DNA of 20,651 nucleotides from positions 1-20,651 of the IMG/VR virus record IMGVR_UViG_3300009149_000362; one strand, written 5' to 3'. Positions 763 through 20,651 of this stretch are shown piece by piece (the first letter of the stretch is position 1; every line of letters starts with the position of its first letter). The translations under genes and the position numbers were made by a program. The stretch is from a virus. The notes under the pieces are model-generated. The model did not search any database and had not been told where the DNA came from. It was given only the letters and a program-made list of their open reading frames with translations.

Positions 763-1620
763 TTAAAGTATCTTATTGGATTTTTTTAAATTTTCAAAAG
801 AATCAAGTGGTCTAAAATTAGTATAATGACTTAACTTTAAAACTTCCTCCTCTGTTTTTGCTGAAGAAATAGGTATTATATGGTCTATTTGCCATGTTAC
901 TTTAACCTTACTATATATACCATTATTATCCCAAGTCATCCAAGGTTCAAATTGACTTTCTAAATATTCTTTAAAATATTCTAATGAACATCCAAGTATT
1001 TCTTCTGATTTTTTAGATTTTATATATCCTAATTTTTTAATAGAATTTTTAACTAAACACCTTATATTACTACTAAGCTTAAAAAGAGGGTCTTCAATCT
1101 TTCTCTCTTTTACTCTATCGTTGATTTTACTTCTATTTAATTTTGCATATTTTTTTTGATATTCTTTTAAGTCATCTAAATTGTCTTTTCTATAACATTT
1201 ATGATACTCTTTAAGTTTTTCTACATTATCATCACGATATTGCTTTATTTTATCACTATTTTCATCACGATATTGTTTTTGACGCTTACTTATCTTATCT
1301 GAATTATCCAGTGCATATTTAGCAGCGTATTCTTTAGCTTTTCCTTTATTTTTTTCACGATATTCACATATCTTATCCGAATTATCCAATGCATATTTAG
1401 CAGCATATTCTTTAGCTTTCTCTCTATTACTTTCCCTATACAATTTCATATTCTCTTTATTTTTTTCTTTGAGAATACCCTTGTTTTTATCTCTATAAGA
1501 TTTAGCATATAATTTATCGCAATCTAAGCAATTTCCTTTTCTATTTCCAGTTTTTTTTATTAAATAAAACTCTTCTTCTCCTTTTTCATACTTACATTTA
1601 TTGCATATTTTCTTATTCAT
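763..1620 (-). CDS. Free-standing HNH homing-type endonuclease
   Basis: This 285-residue protein has three parts. The N-terminus carries two CxxC pairs (C6/C9 and C31/C34) that probably bind zinc. The middle (about residues 36-170) is a charged, helical linker with repeated YREKN / KEYAAKYALDNSDKI units. The C-terminus is an HNH nuclease core with WQIDHIIP (D246, H247), then TNFRPLDSFEN and KKSNK. HNH enzymes of this kind nick or cut phage DNA and spread their own genes. It sits alone between a coiled-coil gene and the baseplate gene, with about 50-60 bases of AT-rich DNA on each side, as expected for an intergenic homing insertion. A decayed relative lies at 2040-2338. All expected core residues are present, so it looks functional. 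Confidence 0.85.
   Translation of the reverse strand: MNKKICNKCKYEKGEEEFYLIKKTGNRKGNCLDCDKLYAKSYRDKNKGILKEKNKENMKLYRESNREKAKEYAAKYALDNSDKICEYREKNKGKAKEYAAKYALDNSDKISKRQKQYRDENSDKIKQYRDDNVEKLKEYHKCYRKDNLDDLKEYQKKYAKLNRSKINDRVKERKIEDPLFKLSSNIRCLVKNSIKKLGYIKSKKSEEILGCSLEYFKEYLESQFEPWMTWDNNGIYSKVKVTWQIDHIIPISSAKTEEEVLKLSHYTNFRPLDSFENLKKSNKIL
1291..1420 (-). repeat. 78-bp period direct repeat inside the HNH linker
   Basis: About 50 bases at 1291-1340 recur at 1369-1418 with about three mismatches, an offset of 78 bases or 26 codons. The repeat encodes two copies of KAKEYAAKYALDNSDKI in the helical linker between the zinc region and the HNH core. Because the offset is a multiple of three, the duplication lengthens the linker without breaking the frame. 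Confidence 0.7.
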
Positions 1621-3900: not shown

Positions 3901-4308
3901 ATGTCAGAAAATCAAGATTACACATTTATAGTTCAACAATTAGAAAGAATGTCTACAAAGATGGATGAGATTTCTAAAGAGGTTCAACTTACAAATATAG
4001 AAATAGCTAAGCTTAATGGAATGAAGCACACTCTTAATGACTTCAAAACCTGGAAAGAGAATGTTGAAAGCGCTGTAAACGCAGAAGACCTTAGACTTAT
4101 GAAATCTGCTTTAACTGAAGTTCAAAAACATGCTGAAGATATGGATAAGGTTGAAAAAGATATTGAAAAGCTTAAAACAGGGAAGGAACAAGATAAAAAA
4201 GAAATTGATAAGCTTAAAACTTTTAAAACTCAAGTTGTTACATACGGAACAATTGCTACCTCTCTTTTTGCGTTAGCTCTTACTGTTCTTGGTTGGTATC
4301 TTTCTTAG
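3901..4308 (+). CDS. Tail-anchored coiled-coil membrane protein (holin/XhlA-like layout)
   Basis: A 135-residue protein with a long coiled coil (about residues 5-110, rich in Lys and Glu with heptad spacing) and one hydrophobic C-terminal segment (about 113-134, TIATSLFALALTVLGWYLS). There is no N-terminal signal, so the coiled coil should face the cytoplasm with the C-terminus in the inner membrane. XhlA-type phage lysis proteins share this layout but are usually shorter, so a lysis role is only a possibility. The gene ends in TAG, and its last 29 bases overlap the 3' end of the convergent RNase H gene. Confidence 0.7.
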   Translation: MSENQDYTFIVQQLERMSTKMDEISKEVQLTNIEIAKLNGMKHTLNDFKTWKENVESAVNAEDLRLMKSALTEVQKHAEDMDKVEKDIEKLKTGKEQDKKEIDKLKTFKTQVVTYGTIATSLFALALTVLGWYLS

Positions 4309-4759
4309 AAGCTTGTTTAGCCATACTATCAACAATTCTTATATACTTCGTAGTATTCCTCTTTACGTGAATTGGATTTACATTTAATCTATTTACAAGA
4401 TTAATTAACTTCTCCCAAGAATCCCTATTTTCAACTGGATTATTTTTACTGTTTAACCAGCCATTTTTAATCCACTTATCAAACCACCTATCTTTTAGGC
4501 AATTTATTACATAAGCACTATCTGAGTAAAGATTTATTGACTCAGAAGTATTTGATGCTGCGCTAAGAGCTTCTGCAGCTGCATTAATTTCCATCTCTTG
4601 ATTTGTCGTTCCTATTTTCCTTCCAGTTCCTTGCTTTACAATCTCACTGTCTTTCCCTGGTTTCTTTTCTAAAATAACAAATGCCCATCCGCCTATTCCT
4701 TCTGCAACTCCATCTTGTCTGGAATTCTCCTTGCACGCTCCGTCTGTATATATATTCAT
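4280..4759 (-). CDS. rnhA: Ribonuclease HI
   Basis: A 159-residue RNase HI, which cuts the RNA strand of RNA-DNA hybrids and would remove replication primers. The four acidic catalytic positions are visible: D6 (YTDGAC), E57 (NQEMEINAAAEAL), D80 (LYSDSAYV) and D144 (VDSMAKQA). The helper histidine that normally follows the VKGH motif is replaced by asparagine (VKRN, N135), which may slow the enzyme. Length and order of elements match the bacterial family. The start ATG overlaps the polymerase stop in an ATGA junction at 4756-4759, so it is probably co-translated with the polymerase. The 3' end overlaps the convergent gene at 4308. Confidence 0.93.
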   Translation of the reverse strand: MNIYTDGACKENSRQDGVAEGIGGWAFVILEKKPGKDSEIVKQGTGRKIGTTNQEMEINAAAEALSAASNTSESINLYSDSAYVINCLKDRWFDKWIKNGWLNSKNNPVENRDSWEKLINLVNRLNVNPIHVKRNTTKYIRIVDSMAKQASKKDTNQEQ

Positions 4760-6588
4760 TGTTTTTCTTCTATCTCTTTTTTACTTGTGTCTTTATCAAC
4801 TCTTACTATTCTTGTTCCTCTCTTAAAGTTTATGTAGCCTTTATTGTTTTTAGCGAATTCTGCTACATAAATTCCATTAGCCTGAAGCATAGGATATAAA
4901 TCTTTTGCAGTAGGGTCAAATGCTCTAAGAGTAGAAAAACTTATTCCATCCCCAACCTTCATTGTTAAATATTCTTTTCCAGTTCTTCCTTGAATCATTT
5001 TAAATGACTCAACAACAAATATGTAAAAATCATCATCATCGAAGTTAACTATTGTTTCCACTAATTTATCTCTCTTAGCTCTATCATTTACATCTTTCTT
5101 TATCTCAAGTATGTATTTAATCTTTTCAAGGTCAAAATTACAAACCTCTATAAAGTCCACTCTTTTTTCATTATCTGTTGTTGGAGGAAACTTTTTAATA
5201 TCATGTTTCACTGGTATGTCAAAAGCAGGGTCATTCATATCAAATAAAATAGTCTGATTTGCTACCTCTTTCTTTTTCTTTTTCATCTTCACAGCAAGAA
5301 GTTGCTCTCTCGAATCTCCCCAATCATCAAAAACACCAGCCTTAAGACATGCTGTAAAAGCAGTTTTATTAAACTTACTGAATGGAAGTCTCATAAATAC
5401 GCTCATACTTATTGTTTCAAGAATCTTCTTATCTTCCCCCTCTTTTACTTGAACACCTGCTACAAGAGAGCGCATCTCTTCGTGAGCAATTTCACCAAAC
5501 CCATTAATTCCAGAGAATCCCATAGATATTTCGTGGTCTCCTGTCATTGTCCATTCCCAACCAGATTTTCTTGATGGTCTTTTTATAACAATACCCTTAG
5601 ACATTGCAGATGCAATTGCAGAGGCAATCCAAATTTGTTGCTTTTCTTTTGTTCCAGACTTTGGGTGATTCAATAAAGCGGTATAAAACTCAGTAGGATA
5701 ATAATGCTTCAAATAAAGAGTCTGCATTGCCAAATATGAATATGAAAGCGAGTGAGACTTGTTAAATGAATATCCCAAATATTGAATTACCCAATCTTTA
5801 ATTTTATCCACCTCTCCTTTATCATACCCCTGAGCAGCTGCTCCTTCAAGGAACATATTCCAATACTGCTGGAAACCTAACCAATTCGGATTATTTAATT
5901 CACTCTCTGTTAGAGTTTCTCCTGCAGAATGCCTGGCAATAATCTTACTTGCCTTATCCATATACCTACGCAAGTTATCTCCCTTACCAAGACCCATACC
6001 ACCAATTCTATCGGCAATAAACATTAACTGTTCTTGGAATACAAGTACTCCGTTTGTTTCTCTTAATATTGGCTCAAGAGCTGGGTGAACTAAATCAATC
6101 TTTTCTGGATTGAACTTATTCATTATAAACTCTTCGTGAGCTCCAATTCCCATTGGTCCTGGTCTATATAATGCATTACAAGCTACAAGCTCTTCAAATT
6201 TCTCAACCTGCATTCCTCTAATAAGATTATTCATCCCACTACTCTCAAATTGGAATATACCGTGATTCATTCCAAGCCTAAGTTCAATGAAAAATTTTTC
6301 ATCTTCAAGGTCAACGTAATCTACTAATTCAGTTATATCTTTTCCTTTTGTTGTCTTTACAATTTCAATAGTTTCCTTAATAACGTTCAACGTCATTAAC
6401 TTCAATCTATCCAGCTTTAGAATTCCAATGGCAGACAAATCTTTACCAGACTTATCAGCTTCCTGAAATGCTGATACAACACTTCCGTTAGATGCAATTA
6501 CATTCGTTGGAACATAATCCCAAGATGGACCTGGAGTAATAACAACTCCCGCAGCATGTTGACCAACTCCTCTAATATTTCCATGCAA
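4756..6588 (-). CDS. dnaE: Family C DNA polymerase, C-terminal part (downstream of in-frame TAG)
   Basis: This frame continues the polymerase of 6634-8856 after one TAG codon. The first complete element is GVGQHAAGVVITPGP, the conserved DnaE segment after the palm, then the third catalytic Asp in ILKLDRLKLM (D60 counted from the TTG at 6586-6588, position 816 of the joined frame). Finger motifs follow (YRPGPMGIGAHEEF, VFQEQLM, YLGYSFNKSHSLSYS), then a helix-hairpin-helix-like region (SGINGFGEIA) and a C-terminal OB-like domain (about 510-600). The only start able to keep these motifs is a TTG; the first in-frame ATG falls after the catalytic Asp. This argues that the part is not made as an independent protein from a normal start. 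It ends at TGA overlapping the RNase H start. Product: replicative chain elongation. Confidence 0.85.
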   Translation of the reverse strand: MHGNIRGVGQHAAGVVITPGPSWDYVPTNVIASNGSVVSAFQEADKSGKDLSAIGILKLDRLKLMTLNVIKETIEIVKTTKGKDITELVDYVDLEDEKFFIELRLGMNHGIFQFESSGMNNLIRGMQVEKFEELVACNALYRPGPMGIGAHEEFIMNKFNPEKIDLVHPALEPILRETNGVLVFQEQLMFIADRIGGMGLGKGDNLRRYMDKASKIIARHSAGETLTESELNNPNWLGFQQYWNMFLEGAAAQGYDKGEVDKIKDWVIQYLGYSFNKSHSLSYSYLAMQTLYLKHYYPTEFYTALLNHPKSGTKEKQQIWIASAIASAMSKGIVIKRPSRKSGWEWTMTGDHEISMGFSGINGFGEIAHEEMRSLVAGVQVKEGEDKKILETISMSVFMRLPFSKFNKTAFTACLKAGVFDDWGDSREQLLAVKMKKKKKEVANQTILFDMNDPAFDIPVKHDIKKFPPTTDNEKRVDFIEVCNFDLEKIKYILEIKKDVNDRAKRDKLVETIVNFDDDDFYIFVVESFKMIQGRTGKEYLTMKVGDGISFSTLRAFDPTAKDLYPMLQANGIYVAEFAKNNKGYINFKRGTRIVRVDKDTSKKEIEEKQ

Positions 6589-6633
6589 CTTTAATGCTAC
6601 ATCAATTATCTCTTTATTCTTTGGGTCTCTAAT

Positions 6634-6636
6634 CTA
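6634..6636 (-). other. In-frame TAG interrupting the DNA polymerase
   Basis: On the coding strand the codons run ...ACT GAA AGG GTT GGA AGA TAG ATT AGA GAC CCA AAG... Frame and family alignment continue across the TAG: the 15 codons between it and the TTG at 6588 encode IRDPKNKEIIDVALK, directly followed by LHGNIRGVGQHAAG as in intact DnaE proteins. There is no inserted element, intein or frame change. Possible explanations are readthrough or suppression, a recent nonsense mutation, or a sequence error. Confidence 0.95.
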
Positions 6637-8856
6637 TCTTCCAACCCTTTCAGTACACTCTGGTTTATCTGGCCATGTTTCAAACCAATGTCTAAGAGTG
6701 TCATTATAATTTAAGAAGTTAGGCATCTCATCTGTAATAGCAAATACATCAGAACCAAAACCTGTAGCTTCTTTTCCGTGGTATGCTCTAACAACATCTT
6801 TTATTGTATTTTTCTCAGAGAAAGTACTAAAAGTACCAACAGACATTACACGCTCCTTACCATATTTTTCATATAAAAAATTATCAGTAATATCATCTGT
6901 TCCGTTCATGAAATCAATATCAATATCTGGCGGACTATTTCTTTCTGGATTTAGGAAACGCTCAAAATAAAGGTCAAACCTTATTGGGTCAATCTTTGTA
7001 ATATCAAGACAGTAGGACAATAAACTTCCAGCTGCAGAACCCCTGGCTGGTCCAATATCATACCCTTGACCTCTATAGAAGTTTACTATTTCCCAGTTTA
7101 CAAGGAAATAATCAAGCATCTTCTTTGATTCGATTACTTGTAATTCATAATTAAGACGGTCAACATATTCCTTAACTTTCTCATCAGTCATTTCAACTAT
7201 ACCATTCTCCTTGTACTTAGCTATTTTTTGCTTTAACTTAGCAAATGCAAGCTTCACAATTATTTCCTCTGGCTTATCTGTCTTAAAGTAATTTAAAACA
7301 TCTTCTGTTGGCTCATATCTTGGATATTTCTCTACTCCTGTTTCAAATTCAAAATTACACTTATCAGCAATCTTCAAAGTATTTGCCATACAAAGCTCAA
7401 GAAAATTATCTGGATAATTGAAATTATGCTTAGTGTTCATTGTTCTAAAATCTTCACTACCAAAATACCAAAGCTCTCTATTTTCTTTAAGGAAGCAACG
7501 GTCTATAGGTCTATGCTGTTTTATAGATGTAACTATATCCTGAAGGATTGAATCGTCTTTTTCTGGATAATACGTGTCATTACTAACAACAGGCATTATA
7601 TTATATTTCCTCATCATCTTGATTAGGAAATTATTGTATTGTTTTTGAATTGGGAATCTACTGAACTTGAATTCTATTATCAAATCTTCTCCAAATTCAG
7701 TTCTAAGCATGTTTATATAATTCTCCGCTTCTTTTTCACGCCCTCTAAGAGCCATACTCGCTAATTTGCTATCTAATCCCGAAGTAGATACGATAAGCCC
7801 CTCCTTGTACTTTAAAAGCCACTCAGTAGTTATCCTACCTTCTTTCTTAAAGTACCCCTCTGTATTTGCAAGATATAGCAAGTGATTAAGATTACTGTAT
7901 CCTATTTTATCTTTAACAAAAATCTTTACTTTAAAATTATCTCCCTCTAACGATTTCTCTTCAAACAGCCCGATGTTATCATTCAAGAATATTTCAATAC
8001 CAAAAATTGGTTTTATCCCTTTTTTGTTACATTTTTGAAAGAATTCGAAAGTTCCAGATAAAGTTGCATTATCTGTTATTGCCATTGATGTGTGACCTAA
8101 AGATTGCGCCTTTTCTATATATGCATCAACCGAACCAGCTCCGTCAAGTATTGAGTGAAATGTGTGAAGACCAAGTGGGGTTATTTTTGCTCCACCTTGA
8201 ACCTTTGTTTGTGCTGGCTTAGCTTGTACAAAGTCAGAAAGAGATTCGGCAGTAACTATTTCCTCTTTTTCCTTAAATCCAAGAACATCTCTCTTCTGAA
8301 GTTCGAAGAAACATTTTGAAAGCGCTGTAACATCTGCGAGTGCATCGTGCGCATCCTCAAATCCTTTATCAAATAATTTAGTGTAAAGCTCTGGTTGACT
8401 TGGATATTTAAACCCACTTCTACCTCTTGCGTTTGGAATTGCTACAAACTCCGTAGTCAACTTCATTGTATCAATATGCTGAATATCTTGCACGTAATTG
8501 TGCATTTCCTCTCTTAACAGCTCACATCCAACAACATTTTCATCAAACGTAATATTGTGTGCAATTAAATATTTGTTATTTTTAACTGCTGTTGCAAATA
8601 AATCAAGAGCCTGCCTTAAAGGGACTCCTTCGGCCTTTGCTCTTTCATTAGAAATTCTATGAATCTTTATAACTTCATCTGGAATGATAAAGCCATTAGG
8701 TTTTATTATAAAATCTTGTGAATCTGTTTCTATGCCATTGGCATCAAATACTTTCCAAGCTATCTGAACCATTCTTGGCCAGTTATTGAAATCTGTTATC
8801 GGTGCGCTGAAACTAAGCGCCATACCAGTTGTTTCGGTGTCAAATACTATATACAT
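6634..8856 (-). CDS. dnaE: Family C DNA polymerase, N-terminal part: exonuclease + PHP + palm
   Basis: 740 residues up to the TAG. Residues 1-190 are a DEDDh proofreading exonuclease with D6/E8 (FDTETTG), D105 (AHNITFDENVV) and H170/D175 (DAHDALADVTA). Residues about 226-430 are a PHP domain (LHTFHSILDG, H231/H234), but its usual TDH metal motif is TDN (261-263), so metal binding may be weakened. The palm follows with GPARGSAAGSLLSYCLDI, ERFLNPER and PPDIDIDF, where D644 and D646 are catalytic. The third catalytic Asp lies after the TAG, so this part alone could proofread but not polymerise. Fusion of exonuclease and DnaE in one chain gives a stand-alone phage replicase. The ATG at 8856 follows GGAAGAG at a good distance, an unusually clear ribosome-binding site here, and that site sits in a hairpin. 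Confidence 0.92.
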   Translation of the reverse strand: MYIVFDTETTGMALSFSAPITDFNNWPRMVQIAWKVFDANGIETDSQDFIIKPNGFIIPDEVIKIHRISNERAKAEGVPLRQALDLFATAVKNNKYLIAHNITFDENVVGCELLREEMHNYVQDIQHIDTMKLTTEFVAIPNARGRSGFKYPSQPELYTKLFDKGFEDAHDALADVTALSKCFFELQKRDVLGFKEKEEIVTAESLSDFVQAKPAQTKVQGGAKITPLGLHTFHSILDGAGSVDAYIEKAQSLGHTSMAITDNATLSGTFEFFQKCNKKGIKPIFGIEIFLNDNIGLFEEKSLEGDNFKVKIFVKDKIGYSNLNHLLYLANTEGYFKKEGRITTEWLLKYKEGLIVSTSGLDSKLASMALRGREKEAENYINMLRTEFGEDLIIEFKFSRFPIQKQYNNFLIKMMRKYNIMPVVSNDTYYPEKDDSILQDIVTSIKQHRPIDRCFLKENRELWYFGSEDFRTMNTKHNFNYPDNFLELCMANTLKIADKCNFEFETGVEKYPRYEPTEDVLNYFKTDKPEEIIVKLAFAKLKQKIAKYKENGIVEMTDEKVKEYVDRLNYELQVIESKKMLDYFLVNWEIVNFYRGQGYDIGPARGSAAGSLLSYCLDITKIDPIRFDLYFERFLNPERNSPPDIDIDFMNGTDDITDNFLYEKYGKERVMSVGTFSTFSEKNTIKDVVRAYHGKEATGFGSDVFAITDEMPNFLNYNDTLRHWFETWPDKPECTERVGR

Positions 8857-13473: not shown

Positions 13474-14436
13474 TTATTCTACTTCTTTGAAAACATTTGA
13501 CCTTGTAATCTTATATTTTTTTACATTTCCAGACTTTGCGTTGATATAACCTTCTTCCCACCACTTTAACATTTGCTCTTTTTTGAATACAAGAGAGTTA
13601 TCTGTAAGGCTATATGGCGTATAATATATGTTTATAGAAACTTCTCTACCATGAGAATTCAACTTACTTAAATCTATATTATCTTCAGCAGTTTTTCTTT
13701 GCATTATATCCATAAGCCTGAAGAAATGTTGAAGTAGGTTTTCAATCCTTCCTCTCTTAACAACCCCAAACCCTTCTGGAGACAAAACAATAACGTCAAT
13801 CTCAGTAGCTCCATTTTCTATAGCCACCTGAACTGGTATGTGCTCATATATAGCTCCATCTGAATATTGGTTTCCATCTTTCTCAACAATACTCGTAACA
13901 ATAGGAGCGTTACAAGAGGCCCAAAGCCAATCAATGAAGTCTTCATATTTATTATCGTTTGATGATTTAAACTCTGGTCTTTTATCTGTTAAATTTGATA
14001 CTACTGCAATAACCTCTTTATCTGATTTATATAACTTATCAAAATGTTTTTCCTTAAAGTAATCTTTTATTAAATTTCTAAGATTATGTGTTTCTCCAAG
14101 AGTTTTTTTAAGAGTGACTACTCTCTTGAGTGCATTCCATTTTTTAATACTCCCCTCTTTATCGAATGGGTTTACAGAAAAAATATCTTCAGATGTAATA
14201 CTTGTATAACCCTCTTTTAGAAGGTTAAGTTCTCGAATAGAAGTAAGAGGAGCTAAAAGGCTTCCAGTAGATGTTCCGACATACAGGTCGTAATCTTTGT
14301 CTTGGTCTCCTACGAGATGCTGAATTACTCCTCCAGCCCAAGCTCCTTGAGAACCACCGCCACTAATAACAAGAGCTCTCTTGCCTTTAAATGGTTTTTT
14401 ATTCAGTTTGCTTGGTATGTTTTTATCTTCTGCCAT
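13474..14436 (-). CDS. Patatin-like phospholipase
   Basis: A 320-residue protein with all hallmarks of the patatin lipase family, which cuts acyl chains from phospholipids using a Ser-Asp pair. The oxyanion-hole motif is GGGSQGAW (26-33), the nucleophile elbow GTSTG holds Ser56, and the catalytic Asp193 is in the SDGA motif. After Asp193 come strands EIDVIVLSPEG and a helical C-terminus. There is no signal peptide, so it would act on the inner membrane from inside the cell, unless it is packaged. It lies among structural genes, 17 bases after a membrane protein gene, and the start codon abuts a hairpin (14438-14474). Roles could include lysis, membrane remodelling or interference with host defence. 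All core residues are intact. Confidence 0.9.
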   Translation of the reverse strand: MAEDKNIPSKLNKKPFKGKRALVISGGGSQGAWAGGVIQHLVGDQDKDYDLYVGTSTGSLLAPLTSIRELNLLKEGYTSITSEDIFSVNPFDKEGSIKKWNALKRVVTLKKTLGETHNLRNLIKDYFKEKHFDKLYKSDKEVIAVVSNLTDKRPEFKSSNDNKYEDFIDWLWASCNAPIVTSIVEKDGNQYSDGAIYEHIPVQVAIENGATEIDVIVLSPEGFGVVKRGRIENLLQHFFRLMDIMQRKTAEDNIDLSKLNSHGREVSINIYYTPYSLTDNSLVFKKEQMLKWWEEGYINAKSGNVKKYKITRSNVFKEVE

Positions 14437-19935: not shown

Positions 19936-20651
19936 CTATGATTCTGTATTTTCTTCTTTATACTTCCAAATGTAGCCTCCAGAAGATTTTAAATCACCTC
20001 TTGCAGCAGAAGCCACATTTCCTATATGAAAACCATCATCTTTTACTTGAGATAAAAATTCATATTCTTTAATAAAATTATCTTCTTTATCAAATTGTAA
20101 CAAAATTTTTCTTTGACTTGATGCTTTCCCAAAATTAGGGTTTTTATTCCCTAACTGTCTATCTCCTTTTCCATAAGCTGGATTCTTCTCTCCAACGTTT
20201 GCTTTTCTTATCTTTTCTTTTGTCTCATCTGAATGAGAAAATCCTTTATTTTTTCTTTTTTTTGAAGATTCAGATATTTTATTTTTATGCTCTTTTGATA
20301 GTTTTCGTCCAGATAGTTTGTTTGATATTTTATTTTTATGCTCTTTTGATAATTGTTTTCCGAACATAGGATTTTTATCCCCCAATTGCCTATCACCTTT
20401 TCCATAAGCTGGATTCTTCTCTCCAACGTTTGCTTTTCTTATCTTTTCTTTTGTCTCATCTGAATGTTCTCTTCCTTTTTGTGATTCTGAAGCATTCTCT
20501 CTCATTTCTTTTGCCTTATCTTTCCCATACAATTCTTCCCATGATTTTCCTTTCCTGGACTTAGACATATTTTCTTTTTGTTCATCTGTCCATTTATTTC
20601 CATAATTAGGATTGTTTTCTCCAGAATTAGCCTTACTTATTTTACTCCTTA
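19936..20651 (-). CDS. NUMOD-repeat homing endonuclease, C-terminal part (5' end beyond window)
   Basis: The frame is open from the right edge of the window to TAG at 19936-19938; the ATG at 20568 is internal, because RSKISKANSGENNPNYGNKW lies in frame before it. The visible part is a string of NUMOD3-type DNA-binding units (HSDETKEKIRKANVGEKNP, YGKGDRQLGDKNPMFGK, LSKEHKNKIS) followed by a NUMOD1-like domain near the end (LQFDKEDNFIKEYEFLSQV then SSGGYIWKYKEE). Such units target homing endonucleases to specific sites; the nuclease domain, usually GIY-YIG or HNH, would be beyond the window. Several units are nearly identical at DNA level, a sign of recent duplication. It is placed right behind a two-way terminator, a typical safe insertion point. 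Confidence 0.82.
   Translation of the reverse strand, partial: RSKISKANSGENNPNYGNKWTDEQKENMSKSRKGKSWEELYGKDKAKEMRENASESQKGREHSDETKEKIRKANVGEKNPAYGKGDRQLGDKNPMFGKQLSKEHKNKISNKLSGRKLSKEHKNKISESSKKRKNKGFSHSDETKEKIRKANVGEKNPAYGKGDRQLGNKNPNFGKASSQRKILLQFDKEDNFIKEYEFLSQVKDDGFHIGNVASAARGDLKSSGGYIWKYKEENTES
20165..20466 (-). repeat. 71-bp identical direct repeat in the NUMOD gene
   Basis: Bases 20165-20235 and 20396-20466 are identical over 71 bases, offset 231 bases (77 codons). They encode the same HSDETKEKIRKANVGEKNPAYGKG block. Identity at silent sites points to recent duplication or gene conversion. Confidence 0.85.
20274..20352 (-). repeat. 51-bp period repeat of LSKEHKNKIS units
   Basis: GATATTTTATTTTTATGCTC and the following TTTTGATA occur twice, about 51 bases (17 codons) apart, between the two 71-bp repeats. 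They encode two LSKEHKNKIS units. Confidence 0.7.

What the first reader, a model, noticed from the sequence alone, without database searches (positions are those of the whole stretch)
4756..8856. Replicative DNA polymerase interrupted by one in-frame TAG between catalytic aspartates
The sequence shows one frame of 1367 codons with a single TAG at codon 741. Both sides match family C polymerase motifs without gap, frameshift, intein or inserted gene. D644 and D646 lie before the stop; the third Asp (about position 816) and all finger motifs lie after it. The C-terminal part has no in-frame ATG until after the catalytic Asp, so normal reinitiation cannot give a working second half; only a TTG or ATT start could. 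An essential gene is unlikely to be dead, so amber readthrough or suppression (a phage suppressor tRNA or host TAG recoding used at this gene), a true split enzyme with a non-ATG start, a sequence error, or a redundant polymerase elsewhere are the options.
Basis: partly seen in the sequence, partly recalled or inferred. Interest (0 to 1): 0.78.

Follow-up and report, generated by a model that had tools for sequence, protein, structure and literature searches.

The report
One stop codon in phage polymerase gene
A phage DNA polymerase gene that is otherwise intact carries one stop codon where every known relative has tryptophan; this is most likely a single-base sequence error or a recent disabling mutation, although some related phages carry tRNA genes that could read through such a stop.

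Summary
On the minus strand, 4756-8856 is one 1366-codon frame encoding an exonuclease-PHP-PolIII-alpha (DnaE) polymerase of a T4-like phage fragment, with a single TAG at codon 741 (6634-6636). All 34 relative contigs covering the site (down to about 49% identity) have Trp there, and every codon read was TGG. The window therefore differs by a unique one-base change inside a conserved helix. Both halves show equal strong purifying selection (dN/dS about 0.07), no other gene in the window is interrupted, TAG ends normal genes, and coding density is normal under table 11. This excludes genome-wide TAG recoding, an old pseudogene and a family-wide split at this point. The best reading is a recent Trp-to-amber change: a consensus error, a defective allele, or a tolerated amber. 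Tolerance is not idle. Two relative lineages encode CUA-anticodon tRNAs, and one has a small gene interrupted by the same in-frame TAG in two assemblies. But isolated TAA interruptions also occur, and the window's own tRNAs are unknown because it is only a 20.6-kb fragment. All seven longer relatives also encode a family A polymerase. In passing: relatives' polymerases are fractured by split inteins, one of them into four polypeptides.

The parts
4756..8856 (-). Phage DNA polymerase gene: RNase_T-type exonuclease + PHP + PolIII alpha (DnaE), 1366 codons with one internal TAG
   Evidence: PF00929, PF02811, PF07733, PF17657 hits on the two halves; collinear with intact relatives
6634..6636 (-). 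TAG codon 741; relatives have TGG (Trp)
6637..8856 (-). N-terminal part (740 aa): exonuclease, PHP, palm with D644/D646 at 6925-6927 and 6919-6921
4756..6633 (-). C-terminal part (625 aa): rest of palm with D816 at 6409-6411, fingers, HHH
6394..6396 (-). first in-frame ATG after the TAG (codon 821), already past the third catalytic Asp
4280..4759 (-). RNase H gene directly downstream (overlaps the polymerase stop)
   Evidence: PF00075

Best explanation
The contig carries a recent single-base nonsense change (TGG Trp741 -> TAG) in an otherwise intact, standard-code phage DnaE-type polymerase. It is either a consensus or assembly error or a genuine but young allele that makes a 740-residue, catalytically incomplete product in most hosts. 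Shown: the single-base nature, its uniqueness, conservation of both halves, no other interrupted gene. Inferred: that it is young or artefactual and has no programmed role.
For: All relatives covering the site have Trp: 36 loci from 34 contigs, with codon TGG in every one read. One G-to-A transition separates TGG from TAG. dN/dS against the closest relative is 0.067 upstream and 0.071 downstream of the stop. The window departs from only 5 of 715 invariant columns, within the 4-19 typical of relatives, so no decay has followed. No other conserved gene in the window is interrupted. Isolated stops of other kinds (TAA) also interrupt occasional genes in these metagenomic phages, so a lone stop is a background event.
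Against: Reads are not available, so neither the error nor the young-allele reading is shown. CUA-anticodon tRNAs in relatives give a way for such an allele to persist. The codons just before the stop also differ from relatives (E-x-x-G-R for P-x-x-R-N), so the site is not a lone difference from otherwise consensus sequence.
Confidence: 0.62

Rival explanations
1. The TAG is real and is decoded during infection by a phage-encoded (or host) amber suppressor tRNA with a CUA anticodon, so full-length polymerase is made at some efficiency.
For: G003 (195 kb; DnaE halves 75-81% identical to the window's) and G012 carry a CUA-anticodon tRNA in a syntenic tRNA array; the more distant G018 carries two different ones (64 bits to the tRNA model). 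G003 and G005 share a small gene interrupted in frame by TAG, two assemblies agreeing, with PHROG profile matches that run across the stop. G018 has a repeat protein with TAG where a sister repeat has Trp. Purifying selection is equal on both sides of the stop.
Against: The window is a fragment without any tRNA, so its own suppressor is unknown. In CUA-tRNA phages TAG still ends about 11-17% of ORFs without longer hidden extensions than TAA, and their polymerases have TGG or Trp at the site. The Trp is invariant in the family, so a non-Trp insertion could be harmful; the amino acid carried by these tRNAs is undetermined. TAA-interrupted ORFs occur too.
Confidence: 0.25
2. Two-polypeptide polymerase: the halves are made separately, the second from a non-ATG start (ATT 742 or TTG 757), and associate.
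For: Split yet active T4-type gp43 polymerases exist (43A/43B of Aeromonas phage 25, PMC2988022). Relatives of this very gene are made in 2-4 pieces.
Against: No insert, no new start or intergenic region, no ATG before D816. The break lies inside a well-predicted helix (residues 178-185 of the model, W at 183). Split relatives use inteins at other sites, and none has this break.
Confidence: 0.04
3. DnaE is dispensable because a second polymerase replaces it, and the TAG starts its loss.
For: All 7 longer relative records encode a family A polymerase of about 550-560 aa; none encodes family B.
Against: Every relative keeps an intact (or intein-split) DnaE, and dN/dS is about 0.07; no further damage in the window copy. 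Whether the window's genome has the family A gene is unknown.
Confidence: 0.07

Closest known systems
Phage DnaE-type (family C, PolIII alpha) DNA polymerases
   Same: exonuclease, PHP, palm and finger domains; catalytic Asp motifs conserved
   Different: one TAG inside the frame at a conserved Trp; residues 696-741 are poorly covered by the bacterial family model
Amber-recoded phages (table 15 crAss-like, Lak) with Sup-CTA tRNA (PMC11210395)
   Same: relatives carry CUA-anticodon tRNAs
   Different: one TAG only, normal coding density, TAG used as a stop
Fractured genes with split inteins and a free-standing endonuclease (Dassa et al. 2009, from memory; the paper was not held)
   Same: relatives' DnaE genes have this arrangement at PERN|S, GPARG|S and YSFNK|S
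   Different: the window gene has none of these inteins; its interruption is a point change elsewhere
Split gp43 polymerase (43A/43B) of Aeromonas phage 25
   Same: T4-related phage polymerase potentially in two pieces
   Different: family B there; separated by inserted sequence with a proper second cistron (PMC2988022)

Membership tests
Family C DNA polymerase (DnaE) | PolIII alpha palm and finger domains with three catalytic Asp | tested here: met
   PF07733 9.8e-51 and 3.5e-10, PF17657 7.5e-43; D644, D646, D816 present
TAG-recoded (table 15) phage | TAG in frame in many genes, low coding density under table 11 | tested here: not met
   one in-frame TAG in about 20 ORFs, density 0.87 with or without TAG open
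Amber suppression | CUA-anticodon tRNA in the same genome or host | not testable with these tools
   window is a 20.6-kb fragment; relatives G003, G012, G018 have one
Amber suppression | TAG conserved at this site among relatives | tested here: not met
   Trp in all 34 contigs covering the site
Split-intein fractured gene | intein N and C halves flanking the break | tested here: not met
   window frame is collinear with intein-less relatives
Split two-cistron polymerase | usable start for the second half upstream of D816 | tested here: inconclusive
   no ATG; ATT 742 and TTG 757 are the nearest candidates
Decayed pseudogene | relaxed selection, further disruptions | tested here: not met
   dN/dS 0.07 both sides, 5 of 715 invariant columns altered

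The most novel reading that the evidence does not exclude
A standard-code phage lineage that carries CUA tRNAs tolerates isolated amber codons at Trp positions even in its replicative polymerase, making polymerase output dependent on its own suppressor tRNA (an infection-stage switch) without genome-wide recoding.
Probability: 0.12. Interest if true: 0.75.

Novelty: new member of a known kind. Interest (0 to 1): 0.33.

Why it matters
If it is an error or a dead allele, it matters little beyond caution in calling recoded genes from one metagenomic contig. If it is decoded, it would show that phages with amber suppressor tRNAs can place single ambers in essential replication genes while keeping the standard code, a state between no recoding and table 15. 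The surrounding family, with polymerases split by up to three inteins, a second family A polymerase and large tRNA arrays with CUA tRNAs, is itself a good system for asking how phages keep broken-up essential genes working.

Tried and rejected
Genome-wide TAG recoding: rejected. Intron or intein at the TAG: no insert; Rfam finds no intron in window, L001, L004 or L012. Downstream readthrough-stimulating RNA structure: nothing notable (z -0.8 to -1.8 against mononucleotide shuffles). Excess of TAG over TAA/TGA interruptions in the family as proof of suppression: not shown, since TAA cases also occur. G003 237-1151 looked like TAG readthrough but continues into a separate patatin gene that is a distinct ORF in the window. 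L028, a bacterial-genome hit to the site pattern, is a chance match without polymerase homology. L079 (508 kb) shares a similar CUA tRNA but lacks this polymerase and shows no recoding. Identity of the CUA tRNAs could not be fixed: their anticodon arms resemble Trp and Gln types, discriminator bases fit neither cleanly (inference).

Full report
Observation. The window is a whole virus record of 20,651 bases, a T4-like phage fragment: portal gp20, large terminase and a gp19-like tail tube (the gp19 score is just below Pfam's cut-off). The reported gene is on the minus strand, 8856->4756. It has 1366 codons and a terminal TGA, with one internal stop, TAG, at codon 741 (6634-6636). The upstream part matches RNase_T exonuclease, PHP and the first part of DNA_pol3_alpha; the downstream part matches the rest of DNA_pol3_alpha, the finger domain and, weakly, HHH.

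Comparison. Twelve IMG/VR relatives were found. In all of them the alignment passes codon 741 in frame and the codon is TGG. A pattern scan that accepts TAG or TGG found 14 contigs, all TGG. A wider profile search extended this to 36 loci from 34 contigs down to about 49% identity, all Trp. None of these polymerases has an in-frame stop. The TAG is therefore unique in the collection, one transition from the conserved codon.

State of the gene. Against the closest relative (L001, about 90-92% identity) dN/dS is 0.067 before and 0.071 after the stop. The window departs from 5 of 715 invariant columns, counting the TAG; relatives depart from 4 to 19, leaving out L012, whose intein boundaries confuse the count. 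No other conserved gene in the window is interrupted. The product was under full constraint until very recently, or still is. In an AlphaFold2 model of the core (mean pLDDT 88.6) the Trp falls inside a confident helix, between the second and third catalytic Asp. A truncation at 741 lacks D816 and the fingers.

Is TAG decoded? Table-15 style recoding is excluded: coding density is 0.87 under table 11 and unchanged if TAG is opened, and TAG is a normal terminator in the window and in relatives (about 11-17% of ORFs in the CUA-tRNA phages G003, G018 and G012). However, relative G003 (195 kb) has some 40 or more tRNA genes, one with a CUA anticodon. The same tRNA lies in G012, and the more distant G018 has two different CUA tRNAs. 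Their amino acid is not determined. G003 and G005 share a short gene with an in-frame TAG at codon 72, whose PHROG matches cross the stop, at E about 1e-3 only. G018 has a repeat protein with TAG in place of a Trp codon seen in a sister repeat. These keep suppression alive. Against it, ORFs interrupted by TAA are also seen (for example a J-domain-like ORF at G003:93971), so lone stops are a general background in these assemblies.

Redundancy. All seven longer relatives encode a family A polymerase as well as DnaE and none a family B enzyme. This weakens the premise that a dead DnaE must be lethal, but DnaE is kept intact everywhere else.

Verdict. Most likely this is a recent Trp-to-amber point change, artefactual or real (0.62); amber suppression is the main rival (0.25). 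The deciding data, reads and the rest of the genome, are not in reach here.

Side finding. Relatives' DnaE genes are broken by split inteins. In L001 and L004 the first cistron ends in an intein-N-like stretch after PERN, a separate 359-373 aa ORF follows, and the third cistron starts with an intein-C-like stretch ending HN|SPPDIDIDF. In L012 three such sites (GPARG|S, PERN|S, YSFNK|S) divide the polymerase into four cistrons. Pfam support is weak per half (below Pfam cut-offs except one) but consistent: Hint and Intein_splicing profiles, N halves to the profile start and middle, C halves to its end.

Noticed in passing
L012:3825-10709 (IMGVR_UViG_3300017917_005124): DnaE polymerase divided into four cistrons by three apparent split inteins (GPARG|S, PERN|S at the catalytic DIDID motif, YSFNK|S, which from memory is the cyanobacterial DnaE intein site).
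   Followed up: partly
L001:6148-7697, L004:6130-7700: Split intein at PERN|SPPDIDIDF with a separate 359-373 aa ORF between the halves (endonuclease-like by arrangement; only a weak DUF7487 match).
   Followed up: partly
L188:266-339 and 2292-2365 (G018); L059:2285-2357 (G003): CUA-anticodon (amber suppressor-like) tRNA genes in large tRNA arrays of related phages that still use TAG as a stop.
   Followed up: partly
G003:C1:103616-104002 and G005:C1:13222-13428: Same small gene interrupted by an in-frame TAG in two assemblies.
   Followed up: partly
G018:C1:11671-11946 (minus): HREDGPA-repeat protein with TAG where a parallel repeat has a Trp codon.
   Followed up: no
window 13474-14436 (minus): Patatin-like phospholipase gene among phage structural genes; a related patatin ORF also follows a structural gene in G003 (1152-2192).
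   Followed up: no
window 763-1620, 2329-2781, 19936-20568: Endonuclease-like ORFs: one HNH-like by eye without a Pfam match, one DUF559/Vsr-like, one with NUMOD3 motifs.
   Followed up: no
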